Shown here: one piece after another, positions 12,238 through 18,956 of the stretch
Position numbering within the stretch: position 1 is the first letter of the stretch
How the letters are laid out: the number at the start of each line of letters is the position of its first letter
Assembly (NCBI GenBank): GCA_017516485.1
Contig: JAFXCH010000053.1
Location: 1 to 36,622 of the forward strand
DNA from: Clostridia bacterium
GTDB taxonomy: Bacteria; Bacillota; Clostridia; Oscillospirales; Acutalibacteraceae
DNA length: 36,622 nucleotides
Direction of reading: 5' to 3'
Notes under the pieces: generated by a model
Databases searched by the model: none
What the model was told of the DNA's origin: nothing
The model's input: only the letters and a program-made list of their open reading frames with translations
Position numbers and translations under genes: made by a program

Positions 12238-12313
12238 GCTGGAATAGCTCAGTTGGTAGAGCAGCTCATTCGTAATGAGCAGGTCGCGTGTTCGAGTCAC
12301 GTTTCCAGCTCCA
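12238..12313 (+). tRNA. tRNA-Thr (anticodon CGU)
   Basis: This 76-base gene folds as a complete cloverleaf. The acceptor stem GCTGGAA pairs with TTCCAGC, the D arm is GCTC/GAGC, and the anticodon stem GCTCA/TGAGC carries loop TTCGTAA with anticodon CGT. The T arm has TTCGAGT, the discriminator base is T and CCA is encoded. It reads ACG (threonine) codons. Its 3' half, from the anticodon loop to CCA, is duplicated at 18911-18956, marking it as the integration site of the island that follows. The gene stays intact after insertion. Confidence 0.97.
12268..12313. repeat. Left attachment site (att core, 46 bp)
   Basis: The 46 bases from ATTCGTAATGAG to the CCA end of the tRNA are repeated exactly at 18911-18956. 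The match breaks on both sides (C versus A before, A versus T after). This is the att core produced by tyrosine-recombinase integration at a tRNA 3' end. Confidence 0.93.
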
Positions 12314-12319
12314 ATGCTT

Positions 12320-12356
12320 CAAACCGCTCTATATCAACGGTTTGGAGCTTTTTTAT
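12320..12356 (+). terminator. Terminator downstream of tRNA-Thr, supplied by the island
   Basis: CAAACCG (12320-12326) pairs with CGGTTTG (12338-12344), followed by GGAGCTTTTTTAT. It replaces the ancestral tRNA terminator, which the insertion moved to 18958-18997. A CCGCTC copy overlaps the left arm. Confidence 0.7.
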
Positions 12357-12396
12357 ATTTGCTTAATGTGCAGAATTACACCCTCAAAAACAGGTG

Positions 12397-12417
12397 TTTG
12401 GAGTTTATTTGGAGTTT
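12397..12417. repeat. Integrase arm-type sites, left end
   Basis: Two copies of TTTGGAGTTT start at 12397 and 12408, exactly 11 bp apart. The same unit occurs four times near the right end. Helically phased short repeats inside both ends of an island are typical arm sites for the N-terminal domain of tyrosine integrases. Confidence 0.65.
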
Positions 12418-12462
12418 ATTGCCTTGAGAATTATTAAATAATGCAGGATAGTATATATCAGC

Positions 12463-12491
12463 TTTACAAAAAGAAATGAATTTGATAAAAT
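12463..12491 (+). promoter_or_regulatory. Promoter of the candidate structured RNA
   Basis: TTTACA (12463-12468), a 17-base spacer, then TAAAAT (12486-12491). The predicted start is at the first base of the 12498-12596 stem. Confidence 0.55.
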
Positions 12492-12497
12492 AAAAAA

Positions 12498-12596
12498 GGT
12501 TATTCGAGGTGGTAAATTTCGTGTCGACCACACGCTGACGGCAAGACAGGGGAAACCCGAGTAGATGCAGGGGAACGGCACGCCTGCCGAATAACC
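12498..12596 (+). ncRNA. Candidate structured non-coding RNA of unknown class
   Basis: A closing stem GGTTATTCG (12498-12506) with CGAATAACC (12588-12596) encloses three hairpins. These are GTGGT/ACCAC (12509-12513 with 12527-12531), a GGG-GAAA-CCC tetraloop hairpin at 12550-12559, and CGGCA/TGCCG (12576-12580 with 12585-12589, overlapping the closing stem by two bases). The promoter at 12463-12491 would start transcription at the first stem base. The region has no supported open frame. It lies between the arm-type sites and the end of the integrase gene. I do not recognise it as a known RNA class; an origin-of-transfer or other protein-binding DNA fold is the alternative. Confidence 0.5.
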
Positions 12597-12669
12597 ATTA
12601 TCGAAAATCACAAACGGTTGTGAATATAAAATTTGAGCGGCTTGCCTTTTATGGTTTGCCGCTTATTAT

Positions 12670-14052
12670 TTATGCTTGTTTTGCTTTCTGATTAGAAAAT
12701 AAATCTTGCAGAGCTTCAGCGGCTCTTTCATCCGCTGTTTTAATAGCGTGAGTGTAGATGTTGCCGGTGGTGGTAATGTTTGCGTGTCCGAGCCTTTTTG
12801 AAACGGTCTTTATATCGGTACCGTTGGCAATCATTAACGTTGCGTTTGTGTGCCTGAGGCTGTGCACTGTTATTTCCGGCAGATTATGCCGCCTTACAAA
12901 ATTGTGAAACCATCCGCTGACGGTGTCCGGGTGTATTGGTTTACCGTCCCAAGTGGTAAATACTTTTCCGCTGTTTATCCATTTATCACCGATTTTTAGC
13001 CGCTGCGTTGCTTGCTCTCTTTTGTGTTCTTTAAGAAGCAGCAGAGCGGATTCGGGTAAACGTATAACTCTATGTGATGATTCTGTTTTGGTATCGTTAT
13101 CAAAAACACCTCTATTGGATAGGTATAGACTTGATTTATTAATATCAATAATACCGTTTTTAAAGTCTATATCATGCCATTCCAAACCGCAGGCTTCACC
13201 TCTGCGCATACCGGAATAAAGAATAAGCGTGAACAATGCTTTGTATGTGAGCGGCTCATTCTCAAGACACTCAAGCAGCTCCGCAGCTTCAACCTCATCA
13301 AGGTATTTTGCTTCTTTCTTTTCCGCTCGAGGTGGTTTTACACGGGAGCAGGGGTTATATGGGATAATCTGCCAATATACCGCTGTTGTGAGCATAGTTG
13401 ATATAACACGGTGATAATACAGAGCGGTTGCGCCGGATAGCTTATTATTATCACCTGCAGGAGCAAACAAACTGTTAAAAGGAATATTAAGTGCAGCGGC
13501 TATTTTTTCTGCACTTGAGCGGCTTATGTTTTGCCCACGTGCGGCACTACGAACAGTAGCTGCAGACAAGCCCGTTTTATCACAGATTTTCTGCTGAGTG
13601 ATTTTGTGCTTTTTAATATAGGTTTTTATATCCTTGAGCGGCTTATACTTTGTGTCGCTCCTTATGCCTTCCTCTGCAAGATTCTCATAAAAGCTGAGTA
13701 AATGATGCGGCTGCAGTTTATTTAATTGAATATGGCCAAGAGCCGGTGTAATACGCTTCATACAGTCGGTATAGTTCTTTAATGTGGTAGGCCTTAAATG
13801 TTCTTTAGCGTATTTTTTCACCCATAAATCAAAGAAGTCTGACAGCTTGATATTTCCACCGATATAAAGCCCGTTTTTTACTTGTTCCTCAAACAGCACT
13901 TTTTGCCGCTCAAGCTCTTTTTCTATTTGCTTTTTCGTCATACCCGGTTCGGGTTTCCATGTTATTGAGCGGCGTATTTGCTTACCGCTCGTATCATAGC
14001 CGCTCGAAACAGTAATACGATATGTACCATTGCGTTTAGTTACTGTTGCCAT
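12670..14052 (-). CDS. int: Tyrosine-recombinase integrase with inserted helix-turn-helix domain
   Basis: The integrase catalyses insertion and excision of the island at tRNA-Thr. The 460 residues show an N-terminal arm-binding domain (about 1-55, TKRNGTYRITVSSGYD) and a core-binding domain starting near 70. The catalytic domain has R283 (SGMRRGEACGLEW), K322, H397-R400 (HSLRHTNA), H423 (LGHANI) and nucleophile Y433 (NIYTH). Between the two halves of the core-binding domain sits an XRE-like helix-turn-helix at about 137-198 (ITQQKICDKTGLSAATVR). ATG at 14052 is chosen because AAGGTG precedes it; a GTG at 14061 lies within that site. It overlaps the repressor gene by 17 bases, so the two are co-transcribed. 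Confidence 0.95.
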   Translation of the reverse strand: MATVTKRNGTYRITVSSGYDTSGKQIRRSITWKPEPGMTKKQIEKELERQKVLFEEQVKNGLYIGGNIKLSDFFDLWVKKYAKEHLRPTTLKNYTDCMKRITPALGHIQLNKLQPHHLLSFYENLAEEGIRSDTKYKPLKDIKTYIKKHKITQQKICDKTGLSAATVRSAARGQNISRSSAEKIAAALNIPFNSLFAPAGDNNKLSGATALYYHRVISTMLTTAVYWQIIPYNPCSRVKPPRAEKKEAKYLDEVEAAELLECLENEPLTYKALFTLILYSGMRRGEACGLEWHDIDFKNGIIDINKSSLYLSNRGVFDNDTKTESSHRVIRLPESALLLLKEHKREQATQRLKIGDKWINSGKVFTTWDGKPIHPDTVSGWFHNFVRRHNLPEITVHSLRHTNATLMIANGTDIKTVSKRLGHANITTTGNIYTHAIKTADERAAEALQDLFSNQKAKQA

Positions 14053-14848
14053 TGTCTTCACCTTTTAACATATCTTCAATAATATGGCTCATTTTATTTA
14101 ACGCTTCGTCAACAAATTCATCATATGTTAAGTCTGCTATGCTCCAATTGCTGTAGTTTGATTCTGTAGTCATTATTGAAATTGCGTTTCTCAATTTTTG
14201 CTGAAGTTCATCATATTTTGTTATATCGTGTATAACATTAATGAAAATTTGTTCTATCTCATAAATTTTGTATTTAATCAAATCGTTTTTTGATAATTCA
14301 TCAGAGCGTATTTTAAACAGTTCCTCTTTAACCATATTTGCTATGCAGTCTGTCGATAAAGCGGAGTTTATTTGAGCTGTTAACAAATAAAAAACATAAC
14401 ATAGTTGAGAAAATTGTTCGTTTGCATACAAGGTGTTCAAAAAGGACCTTGAAATACGTCTTTCTTCATCGGCGGTTATTAAACCCTCAGTACTAAGTTT
14501 ATATAGATTTCTATGCTCTGTAGAATACAACTCATTATCTTCAAGCAAGAAAGTGATTAAATTTTCTGATAATCCCGTTTTTCTGCATATATCTTGAATC
14601 GTTATATCTGTTGTCGCGGTATCGGATAGACCAAGAAGATAATCGGATGATACATTAAAGTATTTCGCCAATGCTACAATGCTATTTAATCCCGGCTCGG
14701 CTTTGTTGTTTTGATATTTGCTGATGCTTTCTTTTTTTACTCCTGTAGCCTTTTCAATATCCCTCAGTGTGATTCCGTTTTGAGCGGCTTTGGATATTAA
14801 ATCGGAAAGTCTATCAGCAAAACATCCGGTATTCTCGGTTGATTTCAT
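14036..14848 (-). CDS. XRE-family repressor-like regulator
   Basis: The 270-residue protein has an N-terminal Cro/CI-type helix-turn-helix (about 20-75, ITLRDIEKATGVKKESISKYQNNKAEPGLNSIVALAKYFNVSSDYLLGL). About 190 mostly helical residues without catalytic motifs follow. It is encoded just upstream of, and overlapping, the integrase, and divergently from the excisionase-like and replication genes. That is the position of the master repressor in phages and phage satellites. The start has AAAGGAAA about 6 bases upstream. An inverted repeat TGTTTC-N6-GAAACA lies in its leader at 14862-14879 and may be an autoregulatory operator. Confidence 0.85.
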   Translation of the reverse strand: MKSTENTGCFADRLSDLISKAAQNGITLRDIEKATGVKKESISKYQNNKAEPGLNSIVALAKYFNVSSDYLLGLSDTATTDITIQDICRKTGLSENLITFLLEDNELYSTEHRNLYKLSTEGLITADEERRISRSFLNTLYANEQFSQLCYVFYLLTAQINSALSTDCIANMVKEELFKIRSDELSKNDLIKYKIYEIEQIFINVIHDITKYDELQQKLRNAISIMTTESNYSNWSIADLTYDEFVDEALNKMSHIIEDMLKGEDNGNSN

Positions 14849-14861
14849 AATATTTCCTTTC

Positions 14862-14879
14862 TGTTTCCAATGAGAAACA
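14862..14879. promoter_or_regulatory. Candidate repressor operator
   Basis: TGTTTC (14862-14867) and GAAACA (14874-14879) form a perfect 6-bp inverted repeat with a 6-base spacer, just upstream of the repressor ribosome binding site. A half-site-like GAAACAACAACAAG occurs near 14953. Assignment to the repressor is by position only. Confidence 0.45.
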
Positions 14880-14921
14880 ATGGCGATTAAAATTAACGAA
14901 AAATAATTTTAGTTCATTTTG

Positions 14922-14950
14922 TTGGAGAATCGCAAAAAGTGTGCTAAAAT
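14922..14950 (+). promoter_or_regulatory. Rightward promoter of the excision/replication genes
   Basis: TTGGAG (14922-14927), 17 bases, then TAAAAT (14945-14950). It lies in the divergent region facing the 15038 gene and is probably controlled by the repressor. Confidence 0.5.
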
Positions 14951-15037
14951 AAGAAACAACAACAAGATGTGTTAACAATAATACACTGCTCTTGTTAAAA
15001 TGTCAACAACAATTTTTCACAGAAAGGAATAAAAGAA

Positions 15038-15214
15038 ATGAAAAATAAGGAAATCAGAGAAGCCGCTCACAATGCAGGTGTTAAACTTTGGCAGCTTGCC
15101 GAGGAATTAGGAATGAGCGATTGTTGTTTTAGTCGAAAGCTGAGAAAAGAGTTTTCCCCGGAAGAGAAAACAAAAGCTCTGAACGCTATTGAGCGGCTTA
15201 AGGCGGTGAGTTGA
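15038..15214 (+). CDS. Small helix-turn-helix-like protein (58 aa)
   Basis: A 58-residue frame starts at ATG 15038 with AGAAAGGA upstream. The sequence (KLWQLAEELGMSDCCFSRKLRKEF) has the helix-turn-helix pattern of small XRE-like or AlpA-like regulators, followed by a short charged helix. It is the first rightward gene after the divergent region and overlaps the next start by one base (TGATG), so it is translationally coupled to the excisionase-like gene. In satellites this position often encodes an activator or Cro-like protein; that role is inferred. Confidence 0.75.
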   Translation: MKNKEIREAAHNAGVKLWQLAEELGMSDCCFSRKLRKEFSPEEKTKALNAIERLKAVS

Positions 15215-15462
15215 TGAATATCAGTTACATACCGAGAATGAGAACATTGCCCGAAGCTCTTAAAATGCTCAAAGAATTAGATAGCTCTACGGCTATAACT
15301 TTACGTGCATTGCGCCGCATGGTGAATAACGGTGAAATACCCGTTGTAATGGTGGGCAGTAAACGTCTTATAAATTTTGATAAACTGCTTGAGCGGCTTA
15401 ATGTGGCGGCAGAAATGCCGCCCGAAGCTGTCATAAGGCGAGTTGATGAAAAATGGACATAA
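15214..15462 (+). CDS. Excisionase-like DNA-binding protein
   Basis: An 82-residue protein with a winged-helix/excisionase-type pattern: RTLPEALKMLKELDSSTAITLRALRRMVNNGEIPVVMVGSKRLINFDKLLERL. Proteins of this type accompany tyrosine integrases in Firmicute islands and help direct excision or act as transcription factors. The start ATG at 15214 overlaps the previous stop by one base; a TTG at 15211 is in frame but less likely. The replication-initiator-like gene begins 6 bases after its stop. The family-level call is fairly secure; the excisionase role is inferred from context. Confidence 0.7.
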   Translation: MNISYIPRMRTLPEALKMLKELDSSTAITLRALRRMVNNGEIPVVMVGSKRLINFDKLLERLNVAAEMPPEAVIRRVDEKWT

Positions 15463-15468
15463 TAAGAA

Positions 15469-16011
15469 ATGAAAGATATAAATATTAAAAATGAGCAGTA
15501 TTATGTTGTTCATGGTTGGATGATTACTCAGCTGAATCTAAAAGGTAATCCGCTCATTATTTATGCGATTATTTTCGGCTTTTCTCAAGACGGACAGAGC
15601 GAATTTAGCGGCTCTTTATCGTATCTGCGTGCACTTGCCGGTGGAATAAATGAAGATACCGTACGCAAAGCAATTAAGGAACTCGAAGATAAAGGCTACA
15701 TCAAGCAAAGCCGCATATTGAAAAACGGAATTAAATGTTATAAGGCGAATTTTGAGGGGGTCGAAAAATTAGGGGGGAGCCCCCGAAAAAATCGGGGGGA
15801 GGGGGTCGAAAAAATCGGGGTACCCCCCCGAAAAAATCGGCCCAATAATAAAAGAGATAATAAAATAGATAATAAAGTGATATATAGCGCAGCGGCACAA
15901 AAAACAGGCGGCTTAGCTTCTGAGCCGTCATATGATATAGAGCAATTTGAGCGGCAATCCGCTCAACCGCTGGTATATGTATCACAAAAAGAAAGAGCCG
16001 CTCAAAGCTAA
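15469..16011 (+). CDS. Replication-initiator-like helix-turn-helix protein
   Basis: The 180-residue protein begins with a winged helix-turn-helix domain (about 10-95; YYVVHGWMITQL...FSGSLSYLRALAGGINEDTVRKAIKELEDKGYIKQSRI) like those at the N-terminus of phage and island replication or DnaD-like proteins. A linker with two related units (GVEKLGGSPRKNR and GVEKIGVPPRKNR, about 97-125) follows, then a polar tail. The linker DNA (15756-15840) is an iteron-like G-rich repeat that could be the replication origin, as in phage initiators whose origin lies inside their own gene. The ribosome binding site is weak, so coupling to the upstream gene is likely. No ATPase or primase domain is present. Confidence 0.65.
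   Translation: MKDINIKNEQYYVVHGWMITQLNLKGNPLIIYAIIFGFSQDGQSEFSGSLSYLRALAGGINEDTVRKAIKELEDKGYIKQSRILKNGIKCYKANFEGVEKLGGSPRKNRGEGVEKIGVPPRKNRPNNKRDNKIDNKVIYSAAAQKTGGLASEPSYDIEQFERQSAQPLVYVSQKERAAQS
15756..15840 (+). repeat. G-rich tandem repeat inside the initiator-like gene
   Basis: Two units begin GGGGGTCGAAAAA at 15756 and 15801, 45 bases apart. Each contains G-runs paired with C-runs: GGGGGAGCCCCC around 15773-15784 and GGGGTACCCC at 15817-15826. CCCCCGAAAAAATCGG occurs in both. Strand-symmetric G/C runs alternating with A-runs resemble origin iterons next to an unwinding element. Confidence 0.6.
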
Positions 16012-16069
16012 TGAGCAGCCCCAACAATAAATATTTCTGACAAGGATATTATATAACGGGGTGTGCTGA

Positions 16070-16831
16070 TTGTCAACTGAATTTGAAATAAGTAACGAGC
16101 GGCTTGCCGTTCTTATTCAGCAAGGCCACAAAGAATTATACGAGCGGCTATGGGAACAGACAAAGAAATTCTTAAAATTGCAAGCATTTAAATACTATTC
16201 TCAGTACCGTGCAATGTTTGACGGTGCAGGGGTTGTTCTTGAGGATTGTTATCAGTCGTGTTTCCTTGCTCTTGTGGATGCTGTAAATGCTTATGACATA
16301 ACATCCGGCTTTTCTCTGCTTGCGTACACAAAATATCCGTTAACAAATCATTTGAAGGCGCTCATAAGCTCAAGCCGTGGTGAAAAGATAGAGCCGCTCA
16401 ATTTGTCGCTCAGCATTGATGCGGCAATAGATAACGCTGATGAGAGCGGAAACACTCTGACATTTGCTGATACTCTGATAGATGAAGCAGCGGCTGAAGC
16501 ATTCGATTATGCAGAAAGAGAAATAGTGAGTGAGCATTTGAGCGGAATATTATCAGAAATATGCTCCCGTTTGAATTGGCAAGAACAAAGGGTAATAACT
16601 ATGTTCTTTTACCAAAACATTGGAATAGCGCAAATTTCAGATTTTTTAGGCTGTGATGCAAGCCGAGTGAAACGTCACGCTCTGCATCTGTTACGGCGAT
16701 ATATCCGCAAATACAAGGCTTGCTTAGGTGATTTTGATAATTATTACCGTGCTGTTGGTGTGAGAGCCTTTCAAGAGCAGTGCGGCAGCAGTGTTGAGCT
16801 TGCGGCTGAGCGGATATCATCTTTTGATTGA
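16070..16831 (+). CDS. Sigma-70-like regulator
   Basis: The 253-residue protein has a region-2-like part (about 45-115: EDCYQSCFLALVDAVNAYDITSGFSLLAYTKYPLTNHLKALI) and a region-4 helix-turn-helix (about 165-220: LNWQEQRVITMFFYQNIGIAQISDFLGCDASRVKRHALHLLRRYIRK). It is therefore an RNA polymerase sigma factor-like regulator. Such genes occur in Firmicute integrative elements and phages, where they drive late or transfer functions. The start is TTG at 16070, 6 bases after GGGGTG. It is the last gene of the rightward block; a hairpin built from two GAGCGGC copies follows at 16862-16893. Confidence 0.75.
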   Translation: MSTEFEISNERLAVLIQQGHKELYERLWEQTKKFLKLQAFKYYSQYRAMFDGAGVVLEDCYQSCFLALVDAVNAYDITSGFSLLAYTKYPLTNHLKALISSSRGEKIEPLNLSLSIDAAIDNADESGNTLTFADTLIDEAAAEAFDYAEREIVSEHLSGILSEICSRLNWQEQRVITMFFYQNIGIAQISDFLGCDASRVKRHALHLLRRYIRKYKACLGDFDNYYRAVGVRAFQEQCGSSVELAAERISSFD

Positions 16832-16861
16832 TGAGTAATGCACAAGTATTAAGAAAGATTT

Positions 16862-16893
16862 TGAGCGGCAAACCGCAATAGGCAAGCCGCTCA
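16862..16893. terminator. Hairpin formed by opposed GAGCGGC copies
   Basis: TGAGCGGC (16862-16869) pairs with GCCGCTCA (16886-16893). It lies between the convergent genes ending at 16831 and 16902 and probably terminates both. The arms are two copies of the island-wide hexamer. Confidence 0.6.
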
Positions 16894-16901
16894 GATATGT
16901 T

Positions 16902-17231
16902 TTATTCTTCTGTATATATAGGGTCAGTTGGTTTTGCTTTATGTCGGTTTTCCTTTAACCATTGCTTGAGCTCTTCAATAGTTTGATATACGTCCTCGTC
17001 AGTGTACCACTCAGGATGTTTAAGACGGCTCATAAGAGCTCCGTACTGCCATCTGTAATCAGATTCAGTTTCAATAACGGGCAGCGGAGTGCTTAAACCT
17101 AAATCCGGGAATGTCATGTATTCTTTTACGGGGATATCAACACCGCCGATATTATACGTCGCACCGAGCGGCGCAGGAATAACATTATTCTGATTTGAGC
17201 GGAATATCGGGGTGGTTGCTGTACTTATCAT
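16902..17231 (-). CDS. Unknown 109-residue island protein
   Basis: I do not recognise this gene. The product is 109 residues, acidic toward the C-terminus, without signal peptide or membrane segment. Visible features are a Pro/Ile-rich N-terminal half (VIPAPLGATYNIGGVDIPVKEYMTFPDLGLSTPLPVI) and a helical C-terminal half with Trp-rich WQYGALMSRLKHPEWYTDEDVYQTIEELKQWLKENRHK. AAAGGAG lies about 9 bases before the start. It is transcribed leftward, opposite to the replication block, downstream of another unknown small gene, so it could be island cargo. A rightward promoter (17249-17277) overlaps its upstream region. Confidence 0.65.
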   Translation of the reverse strand: MISTATTPIFRSNQNNVIPAPLGATYNIGGVDIPVKEYMTFPDLGLSTPLPVIETESDYRWQYGALMSRLKHPEWYTDEDVYQTIEELKQWLKENRHKAKPTDPIYTEE

Positions 17232-17248
17232 AATTTAAAACTCCTTTA

Positions 17249-17277
17249 TTGACATTTCGGAGCGGATAAGCTATAAT
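17249..17277 (+). promoter_or_regulatory. Strong rightward promoter with no obvious gene
   Basis: TTGACA (17249-17254), 17 bases, then TATAAT (17272-17277) match consensus fully. The spacer contains one GAGCGG copy. No open frame follows closely; a transcript would run antisense through the 17351-17536 gene toward the 17734 regulator. Confidence 0.6.
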
Positions 17278-17293
17278 ATAACTAACCGCTCCG
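17258..17293. repeat. Inverted repeat of GAGCGG copies around a promoter -10
   Basis: CGGAGCGG (17258-17265) and CCGCTCCG (17286-17293) are an 8-bp inverted repeat whose loop contains the TATAAT of the rightward promoter. It could be a regulator site or a hairpin. Confidence 0.5.
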
Positions 17294-17350
17294 GCGGTGT
17301 TTTATGGGCTGTTTGTAGTGCTTTCCAGGGCGGTTACAAGCAGCTTTGTT

Positions 17351-17536
17351 TTATTCGGTATCGAGCGGAAAATCAATATTACCGAATCCTATGATATACT
17401 CACTGCGGAATAATTCATTTTCAAATGAAAATCTTATTTCAGTGTTTTCCGCTGCGGTCTTTGCGCTGTTCGGCTTCTTTGCCGGCGGTGTTCTTTTCGG
17501 GTTACGCTTTTTCTTATTGCGTTTTTGCTTTGACAT
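17351..17536 (-). CDS. Unknown small basic/acidic protein (61 aa)
   Basis: The first 22 residues are strongly basic (SKQKRNKKKRNPKRTPPAKK), followed by an acidic, aromatic C-terminal half (ENELFRSEYIIGFGNIDFP). No family is recognised. AAAGGAGTGA lies about 7 bases upstream of the ATG, which supports translation. Its upstream region is shared with the divergent 17734 regulator and holds the three 19-bp operators, one of which (17568-17586) overlaps the likely leftward promoter (TATAAT at 17564-17559). It is probably co-regulated with that small regulator and possibly co-transcribed with the 16902 gene. Confidence 0.55.
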   Translation of the reverse strand: MSKQKRNKKKRNPKRTPPAKKPNSAKTAAENTEIRFSFENELFRSEYIIGFGNIDFPLDTE

Positions 17537-17567
17537 TTGTTATCACTCCTTTGCTGTGATTATATTG

Positions 17568-17655
17568 TACACCAAATATCTGTGTATGTCTATTGACATA
17601 TAATACGAATTATACACTGAATATTTGTGCATATTATACATTGAAAATCAGTGTA
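17568..17655. promoter_or_regulatory. Three 19-bp operator sites
   Basis: Pseudo-palindromes TACACCAAATATCTGTGTA (17568-17586), TACACTGAATATTTGTGCA (17613-17631) and TACATTGAAAATCAGTGTA (17637-17655) fit TACAY-N9-GTGYA. Centre spacings are 45 and 24 bp. The first lies at the leftward promoter, and the third covers the -35 and spacer of the rightward promoter at 17641-17669. The neighbouring HTH proteins are the likely binders. Confidence 0.75.
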
Positions 17656-17669
17656 CAATATGCTATAAT
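17641..17669 (+). promoter_or_regulatory. Promoter of the small XRE regulators
   Basis: TTGAAA (17641-17646), 17 bases, then TATAAT (17664-17669). The third 19-bp operator overlaps it, implying repression. Confidence 0.75.
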
Positions 17670-17733
17670 GAGGACAATGAAAAAGGATTTTTTTCGAGTG
17701 CCGCTCGGAAATATAGAAAAAGGAGCGATTATA

Positions 17734-17946
17734 ATGCCCGTTGTGTATAAAATAGATGTGCTTTCTGCTCTGAAAGAGAAAGGCTATTCGACATATAGAT
17801 TAAGAAAAGAGAAGATTTTAGGCGAAAGTGTCATTCAGCAACTTCGAAACGGTGAGGCTGTAAGTTGGAGTAATATTGCTCGTTTATGTGATTTGTTAGA
17901 TTGTCAAATCGGAGACATTTTGGAATATACACCTGATGATAAGTAA
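17734..17946 (+). CDS. Small XRE-type regulator (70 aa)
   Basis: A single helix-turn-helix domain of the short Cro/YozG type: KIDVLSALKEKGYSTYRLRKEKILGESVIQQLRNGEAVSWSNIARLCDLLDCQIGDILEY. ATG at 17734 is chosen because AGGAG lies 8 bases upstream. The longer in-frame versions from 17593 would start upstream of, or inside, the promoter. It is the first gene after the triple-operator promoter, so autorepression is likely. A second small HTH gene follows after 33 bases. Confidence 0.8.
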   Translation: MPVVYKIDVLSALKEKGYSTYRLRKEKILGESVIQQLRNGEAVSWSNIARLCDLLDCQIGDILEYTPDDK

Positions 17947-17979
17947 ACCGCTCCAACAAGCAGAAAAGGAGTTTTTTGA

Positions 17980-18195
17980 ATGTCGGCATCAGCAGCGATA
18001 AAACAAAGACTTTCTGAATTGAATATGACACAAACAGAGTTAGCGACAGCAATCGGAACTACTCGACAGAATTTAGCTAATAAAATGAGCAGAGATAATT
18101 TTTCCGCTCAAGAGTTGTGTGTTATTGGTGCTGTATTAGGGGTAAAACTTGTTTTGCTCGATAATACCGGCAAAGAGTACAACATTGAATATTAA
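17980..18195 (+). CDS. Small XRE-type regulator (71 aa)
   Basis: A 71-residue Cro/CI-like helix-turn-helix protein: IKQRLSELNMTQTELATAIGTTRQNLANKMSRDNFSAQELCVIGAVLGVKLVLLD. A preceding AAAAGGAG supports the start. It is in the same transcription unit as the 17734 gene. A short CCGCT-CA-AGCGG hairpin followed by TTTT at 18260-18275 may end this unit. Having two different small HTH proteins under one operator set suggests a switch, but their targets are unknown. Confidence 0.8.
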   Translation: MSASAAIKQRLSELNMTQTELATAIGTTRQNLANKMSRDNFSAQELCVIGAVLGVKLVLLDNTGKEYNIEY

Positions 18196-18259
18196 GCCGC
18201 TCAGATTGATTGATATAACGAAACAACTCGAATAATTGTTATGATGTTGGATAATTTAG

Positions 18260-18275
18260 CCGCTCAAGCGGTTTT
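18260..18275 (+). terminator. Short hairpin after the regulator genes
   Basis: CCGCT (18260-18264) and AGCGG (18267-18271) with a two-base loop, followed by TTTT. It is a weak terminator candidate; its left arm is one GAGCGG-family copy. Confidence 0.4.
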
Positions 18276-18348
18276 GAGTATAATTTGTATATCCCGAACA
18301 CTCGAACAGAAACAAAAGCAAATAACAGCCTATTTTGATAATAATTAA

Positions 18349-18381
18349 AGCCGCTCATTCTTTCATCAGAACGGGCGGCTT
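18349..18381. repeat. Inverted repeat in the non-coding right part of the island
   Basis: AAGCCGC (18349-18355) pairs with GCGGCTT (18375-18381). The stretch 18276-18440 otherwise shows no supported gene; the open frame on the minus strand lacks a ribosome binding site. Confidence 0.4.
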
Positions 18382-18445
18382 CTATACGGTAAGGGGGATT
18401 TATAACTATAATATCAATAAATTGCACTAAATAGGGTTAAAATGG

Positions 18446-18474
18446 TTGACAAAGGCACATCCTGTGCATATAAT
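18446..18474 (+). promoter_or_regulatory. Promoter of the antitoxin RNA
   Basis: TTGACA (18446-18451), 17 bases, then TATAAT (18469-18474), a full consensus promoter. Transcription would begin at about 18481, the first base of GTAAGGTGTTG. Confidence 0.75.
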
Positions 18475-18480
18475 AAAAGT

Positions 18481-18563
18481 GTAAGGTGTTGCCGATAGAC
18501 GGTTAACCCCGATTGAATAGGAAAATAATCGCCTACTTTAGCGGAGTGGGGCGGTTATTTTTT
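18481..18563 (+). ncRNA. Probable antisense (antitoxin) RNA
   Basis: A short transcript of about 83 bases is predicted from the consensus promoter at 18446-18474 to the T-run after the 18522-18561 hairpin. It is complementary to the end of the toxin reading frame and the 3' end of the toxin mRNA. Its 5' end (GTAAGGTGTTG) is identical to that of the oppositely transcribed toxin mRNA (18709-18699). It also contains an AACCCC stretch that could pair with the toxin's GGGGGT ribosome binding site. Convergent overlapping RNAs sharing one terminator are the classic arrangement of Fst/RNAI-RNAII-type type I toxin-antitoxin loci. Predicted from sequence only. Confidence 0.65.
18522..18561. terminator. 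Shared bidirectional terminator of the toxin-antitoxin pair
   Basis: AAAATAATCGCC (18522-18533) pairs with GGCGGTTATTTT (18550-18561), a 12-bp stem with one wobble. Seven T follow on the plus strand. The toxin stop codon lies within the stem. Confidence 0.75.
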
Positions 18564-18626
18564 TATGCTCATTATGTAGCCTGTTGCTGCGATAAGTATA
18601 ACTACCACTATAGCAAGATACTCCAT
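18555..18626 (-). CDS. Probable type I toxin, 23-residue hydrophobic peptide
   Basis: ATG at 18626 opens a 23-codon frame ending TAA at 18557-18555. The peptide begins MEYLAIVVVILIA, forms one membrane-spanning hydrophobic stretch and ends SIKK. This is the build of Fst/holin-like type I toxins that act on the membrane. A strong AGGGGGTG site lies 6 bases upstream. A GAGGGC/GCCCTC hairpin (18648-18663) in the leader could hide it. The promoter at 18745-18717 has full consensus, and a complementary RNA is transcribed from the other side. In an island this would punish loss of the element. The toxin call rests on architecture, not on a database match. Confidence 0.65.
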   Translation of the reverse strand: MEYLAIVVVILIAATGYIMSIKK

Positions 18627-18716
18627 AGCATCACCCCCTGTTTATCAGAGGGCAAATGCCCTCTTTTGAATGAGGGCTAACCGCCTACCGTGTTATGACA
18701 ACACCTTACGAAGGAG

Positions 18717-18745
18717 ATTATAACCGCTCAGCTGATAAATGTCAA
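18717..18745 (-). promoter_or_regulatory. Promoter of the toxin mRNA
   Basis: On the minus strand TTGACA (18745-18740), 17 bases, then TATAAT (18722-18717). One GAGCGG copy (18724-18729) sits inside the spacer. The predicted start is at about 18710, again at GTAAGGTGTTG. Confidence 0.75.
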
Positions 18746-18760
18746 CAGAGCCGCTCAATT

Positions 18761-18811
18761 CTTGGTGTTTGTTTGGAGTTTATTTGGTGTTTATTTTAAC
18801 GTTTGGAGTTT
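18761..18811. repeat. Integrase arm-type sites, right end
   Basis: CTTGGTGTTT at 18761, TTTGGAGTTT at 18772, TTTGGTGTTT at 18783 and TTTGGAGTTT at 18802. The first three are 11 bp apart. They match the pair at 12397-12417 near the left end. Confidence 0.65.
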
Positions 18812-18910
18812 GTTTTTCGTGAAAGGTCGTGAAACGCATAGTGTCACAAAATGGCTCTGTATCAACATAAATTGACAGCTTGTGAAACTGTATGAAAGCT
18901 TTGTTACTCA

Positions 18911-18956
18911 ATTCGTAATGAGCAGGTCGCGTGTTCGAGTCACGTTTCCAGCTCCA
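18911..18956. repeat. Right attachment site (att core, 46 bp)
   Basis: Exact copy of the last 46 bases of tRNA-Thr (12268-12313), including the T arm and CCA. It marks the right boundary of the island. Confidence 0.93.

What the first reader, a model, noticed from the sequence alone, without database searches (positions are those of the whole stretch)
12314..18956. Hexamer GAGCGG saturates the island: 41 copies in 6.6 kb
By hand count GAGCGG/CCGCTC occurs 41 times (21 plus, 20 minus) in the 6,643-bp island, about 6 per kb. The other 29,979 bp contain 7, about 0.2 per kb. The extended form is TTGAGCGGCTT: T precedes in 26 of 41 copies, C follows in 24 and G never follows. Copies fall in genes in different frames (Glu-Arg, Ser-Gly, Pro-Leu and Ala-Ala codons), in a promoter spacer and in hairpins, so selection acts on DNA. 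The last eight copies (17701-18756) all face the same way. The core contains AGCGG, the B. subtilis Chi sequence read by AddAB, which suggests protection from nuclease. Other options are an uptake-like tag, a packaging or replication mark, or a site for an island protein. I know of no described Firmicute element with such a mark.
Basis: partly seen in the sequence, partly recalled or inferred. Interest (0 to 1): 0.92.

Follow-up and report, generated by a model that had tools for sequence, protein, structure and literature searches.

The report
Satellite-like island saturated with Chi-like hexamer
A small mobile DNA element in a gut bacterium carries the six-letter word GAGCGG about fifteen times more densely than its host genome, and the same word marks three of the four prophages found in that bacterial genus, so it is probably the "stop destroying, recombine" signal (Chi) read by the host's DNA-end nuclease.

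Summary
In detail: GAGCGG occurs 41 times (21+, 20-) in the 6.6-kb island, 8 times in the rest of the window (not 7) and 922 times in the 2.17-Mb host genome: 6.2 versus 0.41 per kb. Synonymous-codon shuffling gives 2.8 +/- 1.6 coding copies, maximum 10, against 29. GAGCGG is the top strand-oriented hexamer in 3 of 4 prophages found in the genus. It is not enriched in 40 prophage stretches of sister genera (321 seen, 317 expected) or in 159 viral contigs with related terminases. It seems to follow the host genus. Best reading: GAGCGG is the genus's Chi-like site for AddAB; AddA and AddB are present and AddB keeps Chi-contact residues F68 and F210. The island looks like a minimal phage-satellite replicon (int, repressor, xis, initiator with origin, sigma factor) loaded with Chi in both orientations. 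A related island in another genus is loaded with CAGCGG, also the top oriented hexamer of the one prophage sampled there. Against: the hexamer shows no Chi signature on the chromosome, the enriched prophages share an early-gene module, and nothing was tested biochemically.

The parts
12324..18756 (.). Array of 41 GAGCGG sites (21 plus, 20 minus); mean spacing 161 bp, gaps 10-782 bp
12238..12313 (+). tRNA-Thr(CGT); its 3' part is the left attachment sequence
   Evidence: Rfam tRNA
18907..18956 (+). Duplicated tRNA-Thr 3' end (right attachment sequence)
   Evidence: window 18907-18956 matches the tRNA 3' end of the related locus L009 at 98% over 50 bp
12395..12421 (+). Repeats GTTTGGAGTTTATTT near the left end (probable integrase arm sites, inferred)
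   Evidence: families D3/D4
18759..18815 (+). Same repeats near the right end (probable integrase arm sites, inferred)
   Evidence: families D3/D4
12499..12595 (+). skipping-rope RNA (RF02924)
   Evidence: 49.7 bits, gathering 36.7, E 8.8e-10
12670..14061 (-). Tyrosine integrase, 463 aa, with an HTH_3 match at residues 145-196 between its SAM-like and catalytic domains; carries 10 motif copies
14036..14848 (-). CI/RstR-like HTH repressor, 270 aa (RstR model below its cut-off); divergent and motif-poor cassette compared with L009
15038..15214 (+). Small HTH-like protein (weak Phage_CP76/CII match; phrog_17740)
15211..15462 (+). Excisionase-type protein (TIGR01764 27.5 bits, just below its cut-off of 28.8; HTH_17 below cut-off)
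15469..16011 (+). Replication initiator (HTH_36; phage replication-initiation and DnaD-like loader families)
15754..15885 (+). Probable origin inside the initiator gene: iteron-like repeats 15754-15840 and AT-rich stretch 15845-15885 (inferred); in L009 the repeats differ together with the initiator allele (47% aa identity)
16070..16831 (+). Sigma-70-type factor, 253 aa (TIGR02937 above cut-off; phrog_351)
16861..16894 (.). Hairpin made of an inverted GAGCGG pair between sigma and the next gene; a similar hairpin lies at 12631-12663; its inner part is reversed in L009
16902..17231 (-). 109-aa protein, no confident family
17351..17536 (-). 61-aa protein, no family
17677..17946 (+). HTH_26 regulator (ORF open from 17593)
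17980..18195 (+). HTH regulator (DUF6471; HTH_3 just below cut-off)
18446..18720 (.). Type I toxin-antitoxin-like cassette (by eye): 23-aa hydrophobic ORF on the minus strand (18555-18626) opposite a TTGACA-17-TATAAT promoter-like sequence at 18446; absent from L009; motif copies at 18351 and 18751

Best explanation
GAGCGG is the Chi-like sequence of this Clostridia genus: the word at which the host's AddAB helicase-nuclease, entering from a double-strand end, stops degrading DNA and hands it to RecA. The island is a minimal satellite-type replicon (integrase, repressor, excisionase, initiator with internal origin, sigma factor; no capsid or relaxase gene recognised among the ORFs scanned). 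Its extrachromosomal form passes through linear or concatemeric DNA, so it has been selected to carry Chi in both orientations about every 160 bp. AddAB entering from either end then meets a correctly facing site early, which spares the DNA and promotes the recombination that makes or circularises multimers. Shown here: the density, sharpness of the word, independence from codon usage, the same word in 3 of 4 prophages found in the genus on the strand of the terminase genes, no enrichment in terminase relatives elsewhere, and the presence of AddA/AddB. Inferred: recognition by AddAB, the satellite life cycle, and the protection and recombination steps.
For: Genus specificity: GAGCGG is the rank-1 oriented hexamer in prophages C34 of G000 (35 sense:3 antisense, 9.9 expected sense), L126 of G002 (31:1, 7.5 expected) and L141 of G003 (22:4, 5.1 expected). 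Viral contigs (hosts not given) found through the C34-type terminase (79 loci) and the L143-type terminase (80 loci) give 230 seen/250.3 expected and 213/251.4, with z>=3 in 1 of 159 (the 125 of at least 8 kb are). 40 prophage stretches from other genera of the family give 321/316.9, z>=3 in 2 of 40. Sharpness: 18 one-mismatch words tested, none comparable; the highest are CAGCGG 12 (3.9 expected) and GAGCCG 10 (3.0) in the island and GAGCGA 13 (3.6) in L126; AGCGG preceded by A, C or T stays near expectation in the three prophages. AddA above the family cut-off; AddB aligned to the solved AddB 3u44_B (E 7e-105; B. subtilis by recall) with F68 and F210 kept; these are Chi-binding mutant positions in passages of PMC4824097. 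Known Chi-like words AGCGG (B. subtilis) and GAAGCGG (S. aureus) share AGCGG (PMC8022716 passages). Over-representation of Chi in phages that need concatemers is known in E. coli (PMC3784561: abstract, first part of Results and passages read). Second case: in genome G227 the sigma-related island has CAGCGG as its top hexamer (23 in 4.2 kb, 4.4 expected; core bounds set after seeing the sites), and the one prophage sampled there has CAGCGG as its top oriented hexamer (27:5).
Against: In 565 kb of oriented host chromosome GAGCGG ties for 6th most common of 30 same-composition words and its strand bias (145:82) is ordinary; it is not over-represented by maximal-order Markov (142 seen, 162.8 expected); only the longer TGAGCGGC is notably skewed (28:3, 5th of 12,212 octamers) and that is not over-represented (24.0 expected). 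One of the 4 genus prophages (L143 in G010) is not enriched (6 sense, 7.2 expected), although it has the same kind of terminase and early genes as the enriched L141. C34, L126, L141 and L143 share an early-gene module, so they are not independent phages. C34 and L126 were first noticed because of the motif; in the motif-blind terminase search 2 of 3 prophages are enriched. Motif sites are not significantly better conserved than other hexamers between the two island copies (29 intact:2 changed against 821:113, p=0.57). Only 2 of 10 sigma-related stretches in other genera have an xAGCGG word among their top hexamers. No helper phage, packaging site or excision was shown. Of 8 other integrase-bearing stretches of the genus, 7 are motif-poor and the eighth is a GC-rich 4.1-kb contig.
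Confidence: 0.65

Rival explanations
1. GAGCGG is a binding site of a protein shared by phages of the genus and the island (for example a packaging, replication or late-transcription factor) and not of AddAB.
For: The three enriched prophages share an early-gene module, and L138, whose module protein is 94% and terminase 97% identical to C34's, is enriched too (12:0). Several island copies form inverted pairs.
Against: Relatives with the same kinds of terminase are not enriched; L143 carries the same early module and is not enriched; L139 and L140, found through the module's 308-aa protein, are not enriched; the only translated match between the island and these phages is a repressor-type HTH; sites run through all genes, one-sided in phages, two-sided in the island.
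Confidence: 0.16
2. A host-encoded, genus-specific DNA mark other than Chi, such as a polar sequence for a DNA translocase or a segregation or uptake mark that mobile elements exploit.
For: The genus pattern fits any host protein; TGAGCGGC is skewed 28:3 in oriented chromosome.
Against: Such marks should be abundant and skewed on the chromosome; GAGCGG is neither beyond composition, and a different word, GCAGGGGA (27:0), looks more like a translocase-orienting mark.
Confidence: 0.1
3. Mutational or repeat-spread origin: the word spread inside the element as a short recombinogenic repeat without function.
For: Some copies sit in longer similar blocks (hairpins 12631-12663 and 16864-16896); the cassette missing from L009 has motif copies at both edges; site conservation is not significant.
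Against: Most copies share little beyond the core and 29 lie in coding sequence in all six frames; the same word marks prophages in three species.
Confidence: 0.07
4. Codon usage or base composition of the island.
For: None beyond the AT/GC contrast of the island.
Against: Codon shuffle: max 10 in 5000 against 29; composition models.
Confidence: 0.01

Closest known systems
Chi-like sites of AddAB in Bacillota (B. subtilis AGCGG, S. aureus GAAGCGG)
   Same: Contains AGCGG; host has AddA/AddB; an oriented word (words from PMC8022716 passages, which also say that recombination stimulation by AGCGG in B. subtilis is unclear).
   Different: A different leading letter (GAGCGG; perhaps CAGCGG in another genus), and the hexamer is not visibly enriched on the chromosome.
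Chi over-representation in lambdoid and other concatemer-packaging E. coli phages
   Same: Phage genomes carry more host Chi than expected; linked to the need for concatemers (PMC3784561).
   Different: Reported there: 0.2 per kb of an octamer in Rec- phages; here 6.2 per kb of a hexamer, on both strands, in an element with no recognised virion gene.
Phage-inducible chromosomal islands (PICIs)
   Same: int and repressor in one direction, then oppositely directed excisionase, initiator and origin; no structural genes (layout from PMC6092414 passages).
   Different: 6.6 kb and not about 15 kb; no primase, terS, capsid-size or interference gene recognised; a sigma factor instead; no helper or transfer shown.
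DNA uptake sequences of Neisseria/Pasteurellaceae (recalled)
   Same: Dense short word, some copies as inverted pairs at gene ends.
   Different: The host chromosome is not enriched, and the enriched prophages carry it almost only on one strand.

Membership tests
Chi-like recombination/attenuation site | Recognised in one orientation by the host's AddAB/RecBCD, attenuating degradation | not testable with these tools
   Needs biochemistry or a plasmid assay.
Chi-like recombination/attenuation site | Host encodes the cognate enzyme | tested here: met
   AddA 779 bits, over cut-off; AddB E 7e-105 to the solved AddB 3u44_B, F68 and F210 kept.
Chi-like recombination/attenuation site | Over-represented and strand-oriented in phages of that host and not in relatives elsewhere | tested here: met
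   3 of 4 genus prophages against z>=3 in 1 of 159 viral contigs (hosts not given) and 2 of 40 prophage stretches of other genera. Caveat: the genus prophages share an early module.
Chi-like recombination/attenuation site | Frequent and leading-strand biased on the host chromosome | tested here: not met
   tied 6th of 30 permutations, bias 0.64 like its peers; not over-represented, although TGAGCGGC is skewed 28:3. Therefore 'works like Chi', not filed as proven Chi.
Phage-inducible chromosomal island (PICI) | int + repressor, divergent xis + rep + ori layout | tested here: met
   against the layout in PMC6092414; primase not recognised; excisionase model just below cut-off; origin inferred from repeats.
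Phage-inducible chromosomal island (PICI) | No structural or lytic phage genes | tested here: met
   10 ORFs scanned, no such family.
Phage-inducible chromosomal island (PICI) | Size typically around 15 kb; terS/interference genes | tested here: not met
   6.6 kb; none recognised (defence models on 6 proteins). Not filed as a PICI.
Phage-inducible chromosomal island (PICI) | Induction and packaging by a helper phage | not testable with these tools
   No induction data.
DNA uptake sequence | Dense on the host chromosome | tested here: not met
   About 0.41/kb outside the island; ordinary among permutations.

The most novel reading that the evidence does not exclude
A family of 4-7 kb sigma-factor-bearing satellites in Clostridia has turned its own sequence into a carpet of the host's Chi word, and the word differs by one leading letter between host genera (GAGCGG here, CAGCGG in G227). 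Chi specificity of AddAB would then vary by genus around a fixed AGCGG core and could be read directly from satellites and prophages even where the chromosome hides it.
Probability: 0.38. Interest if true: 0.85.

Novelty: new variant of a known kind. Interest (0 to 1): 0.71.

Why it matters
PMC8022716 (passages) counts Chi-like motifs as known for five species, plus its own predictions in Proteobacteria. If right, this gives a candidate Chi for an unstudied Clostridia genus. It also suggests a way to infer Chi from a genus's mobile elements, and gives an extreme natural case of an element hiding from, and using, the host's end-degrading nuclease.

Tried and rejected
Codon usage and composition: rejected. 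Extended word TTGAGCGGCTT as the functional unit: rejected, because L126 has no clear preference before the core and mostly T after it. AGCGG alone as the word: rejected. Strong chromosomal Chi signature: looked for, not found for the hexamer. Conservation of sites between two island copies: not significant. Swapped or missing cassettes being motif-poor (3 sites in 1751 bp against 38 in 4892 bp, P=0.002) is reported, not leaned on; bounds were set after seeing the alignment. Orientation switch at 17363/17701 as a DNA-end mark: longest circular run 9, P=0.035; arc contrast P=0.13, left as a lead. Inverted-pair search of viral contigs returned 43 loci; the densest is a 1.1-kb piece with 5 copies, the rest have at most 2.4 per kb. 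Higher TGAGCGGC counts in G004, G008 and G009: for G004 put down to high GC; G008 and G009 not checked. A listing showed only plus-strand CAGCGG on one long contig; reading a stretch of it gave 15:10, so the apparent skew was a listing effect and was dropped. Lactococcal phages as a Chi control had too few expected sites to tell. BLASTN of the island against plasmids and phages: no match. Papers: PMC4824097, PMC8022716, PMC6092414 and PMC8791490 were seen as passages; PMC3784561 as abstract, first part of Results and passages; other papers as search listings only; one search listed none. Lambda Chi orientation logic is recalled, from no call.
Full report
What is there. GAGCGG/CCGCTC occurs 41 times in the island (21+, 20-) and 8 times in the other 30 kb of the window. 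The host genome, 2,167,148 bases in 65 contigs, holds 922 copies. Against 420 kb of host background it is the most enriched hexamer of the island, 41 seen and 3.1 expected. With the island's own trinucleotide make-up the expectation is 2.7 and 2.1 per strand, against 21 and 20. Shuffling synonymous codons over ten ORFs 5000 times gives 2.77 +/- 1.62, at most 10, against 29. The copies use all six reading frames (one ORF was out of frame in that call and was corrected), and 12 are noncoding. So selection, or some other process, acts on the DNA word.

What the island is. It sits at the 3' end of tRNA-Thr(CGT), with a duplicated tRNA end at 18907-18956. Leftward genes: an integrase with an HTH domain inside it, and a CI/RstR-like repressor. 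Rightward genes: a small HTH-like protein, an excisionase-type protein (just below its model's cut-off), a replication initiator and a sigma-70-type factor; then small unknown and HTH genes. Iteron-like repeats and an AT-rich stretch lie inside the initiator gene. No capsid, terminase or relaxase was recognised among ten ORFs; the defence library was run on 6 proteins and gave only weak matches. This is the gene order of a PICI in miniature (layout from PMC6092414 passages), but size and several PICI genes do not fit, and induction is untested.

A second copy. A related species (G001, whose contig is the record behind L009, a goat-cecum MAG) has the island at the same tRNA. Much of it is 95-100% identical, but the repressor region and the initiator are divergent (initiator 47% aa identity) and the origin repeats have changed with the initiator. 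That copy has 35 motif sites, 33 in shared columns. Divergent or missing cassettes hold 3 sites in 1751 bp, the backbone 38 in 4892 bp (bounds chosen after the alignment). Motif sites are not significantly better kept than other hexamers (29:2 against 821:113, p=0.57).

The same word in prophages of the genus. In the host sample I met a prophage on contig C34 (terminase, portal, major head and tape-measure matches) with GAGCGG almost only on the strand of its late genes, and another in G002. Both were noticed through the motif. A motif-blind search for PF03354 terminases in 11 genomes of the genus found three prophages (G002, G003, G010), and a search with the C34 terminase found only C34. Of these four, three have GAGCGG as the rank-1 oriented hexamer: C34 35:3 (9.9 expected sense), L126 31:1 (7.5), L141 22:4 (5.1). 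The fourth, L143, has 6:4 (7.2 expected). These are stretches of 20-30 kb, not delimited prophages. The four share an early-gene module, and L141 and L143 also have similar terminases, so the three are not independent phages; yet L143 with the same module is plain. None of the 18 one-mismatch words behaves like GAGCGG; the highest are CAGCGG 12 (3.9) and GAGCCG 10 (3.0) in the island and GAGCGA 13 (3.6) in L126.

Controls. Viral contigs fetched with the C34-type terminase (79 loci besides L138; best 80 kept of 204) and the L143-type terminase (80 loci; best 80 kept of 335) show no enrichment: 230 seen/250.3 expected and 213/251.4, z>=3 in 1 of 159; for the 125 of at least 8 kb, 220/230.7 and 203/234.9. 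Their hosts are not given. Of eight contigs found through L126's terminase or the 308-aa module protein, L134 (13:1), L133 (7:1) and L138 (5.8 kb, 97% identical terminase to C34, 12:0) are rich or fairly rich; L136 (11:1, 6.4 expected sense) is mildly so; L139, L137, L140 and L135 are not. In 40 prophage stretches from other genera of the family (40 of 82 such places listed, chosen mainly for long contigs, from 29 genomes) the totals are 321 seen and 316.9 expected, with z>=3 in 2 of 40, L358 and L364. The word therefore appears to belong to the host genus and not to a terminase family, which is what Chi predicts.

A second host and word. The island's sigma factor has relatives in 18 genomes of other genera among 398 searched; stretches around 10 of them were read. 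In G227 the top hexamer of that stretch is CAGCGG, and over the island core it is 23 in 4.2 kb against 4.4 expected (core bounds set after seeing the sites); the genome average is 4436 in about 3.5 Mb, which would give about 5. The one G227 prophage sampled has CAGCGG as its top oriented hexamer, 27:5. In G060 the island has GAGCGG 12 in 5.2 kb against 1.4 expected, second after the overlapping word GGAGCG. The other 8 stretches have no xAGCGG word among their top five hexamers, though L399 has AAGCGG 11 against 4.0 and L397 CAGCGG 7 against 2.5. This is a lead, not proof.

Mechanism. The host has AddA and next to it AddB, whose alignment to the solved AddB 3u44_B keeps F68 and F210, positions where mutation lowers Chi recognition (PMC4824097 passages). 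B. subtilis and S. aureus Chi-like words, AGCGG and GAAGCGG (PMC8022716 passages), share AGCGG with this word. In E. coli, phages that need concatemers and lack their own recombinase carry excess Chi (PMC3784561). I therefore take GAGCGG as the Chi-like word of this genus. One-sided placement in the prophages fits a single exposed end of a concatemer; the late-gene strand is also the active orientation in lambda, as I recall it. Two-sided placement in the island fits ends on both sides, as in a linear multimer delivered in a virion that must recombine to circularise. The last two sentences are inference.

Against it. The chromosome gives no Chi signature for the hexamer: GAGCGG ties for 6th of 30 permutations with ordinary strand bias, and only TGAGCGGC is notably skewed (28:3). 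One genus prophage is plain. The enriched ones share a module. No enzyme was tested. I hold 'works like Chi' at about 0.65 and do not file it as proven Chi.

Noticed in passing
window 12499-12595: A skipping-rope RNA (RF02924) lies between the attachment site and the integrase gene.
   Followed up: partly
window 18446-18720: Type I toxin-antitoxin-like cassette by eye (23-aa hydrophobic ORF on the minus strand, opposing promoter-like sequence), missing from the related island copy; motif copies lie at both edges.
   Followed up: partly
window 12670-14061: Integrase with an HTH_3 match between its N-terminal SAM-like and catalytic domains.
   Followed up: no
window 16861-16894 and L009 10791-10822: The inner part of the hairpin formed by an inverted motif pair is reversed between the two island copies, as if it had flipped.
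   Followed up: no
host chromosome sample: GCAGGGGA is 27:0 on the strand of positive GC skew in 555 kb, a candidate for a translocase-orienting sequence of this genus.
   Followed up: no
L364 and L360 (prophage stretches of other genera): AGCGGG is the first (37:5) and second (34:9) oriented hexamer; possibly another AGCGG-core variant.
   Followed up: no
G000 contig C34, about 106-137 kb: Prophage with terminase, portal, tape measure and a serine recombinase, carrying GAGCGG on its late-gene strand; possible helper, not tested.
   Followed up: partly
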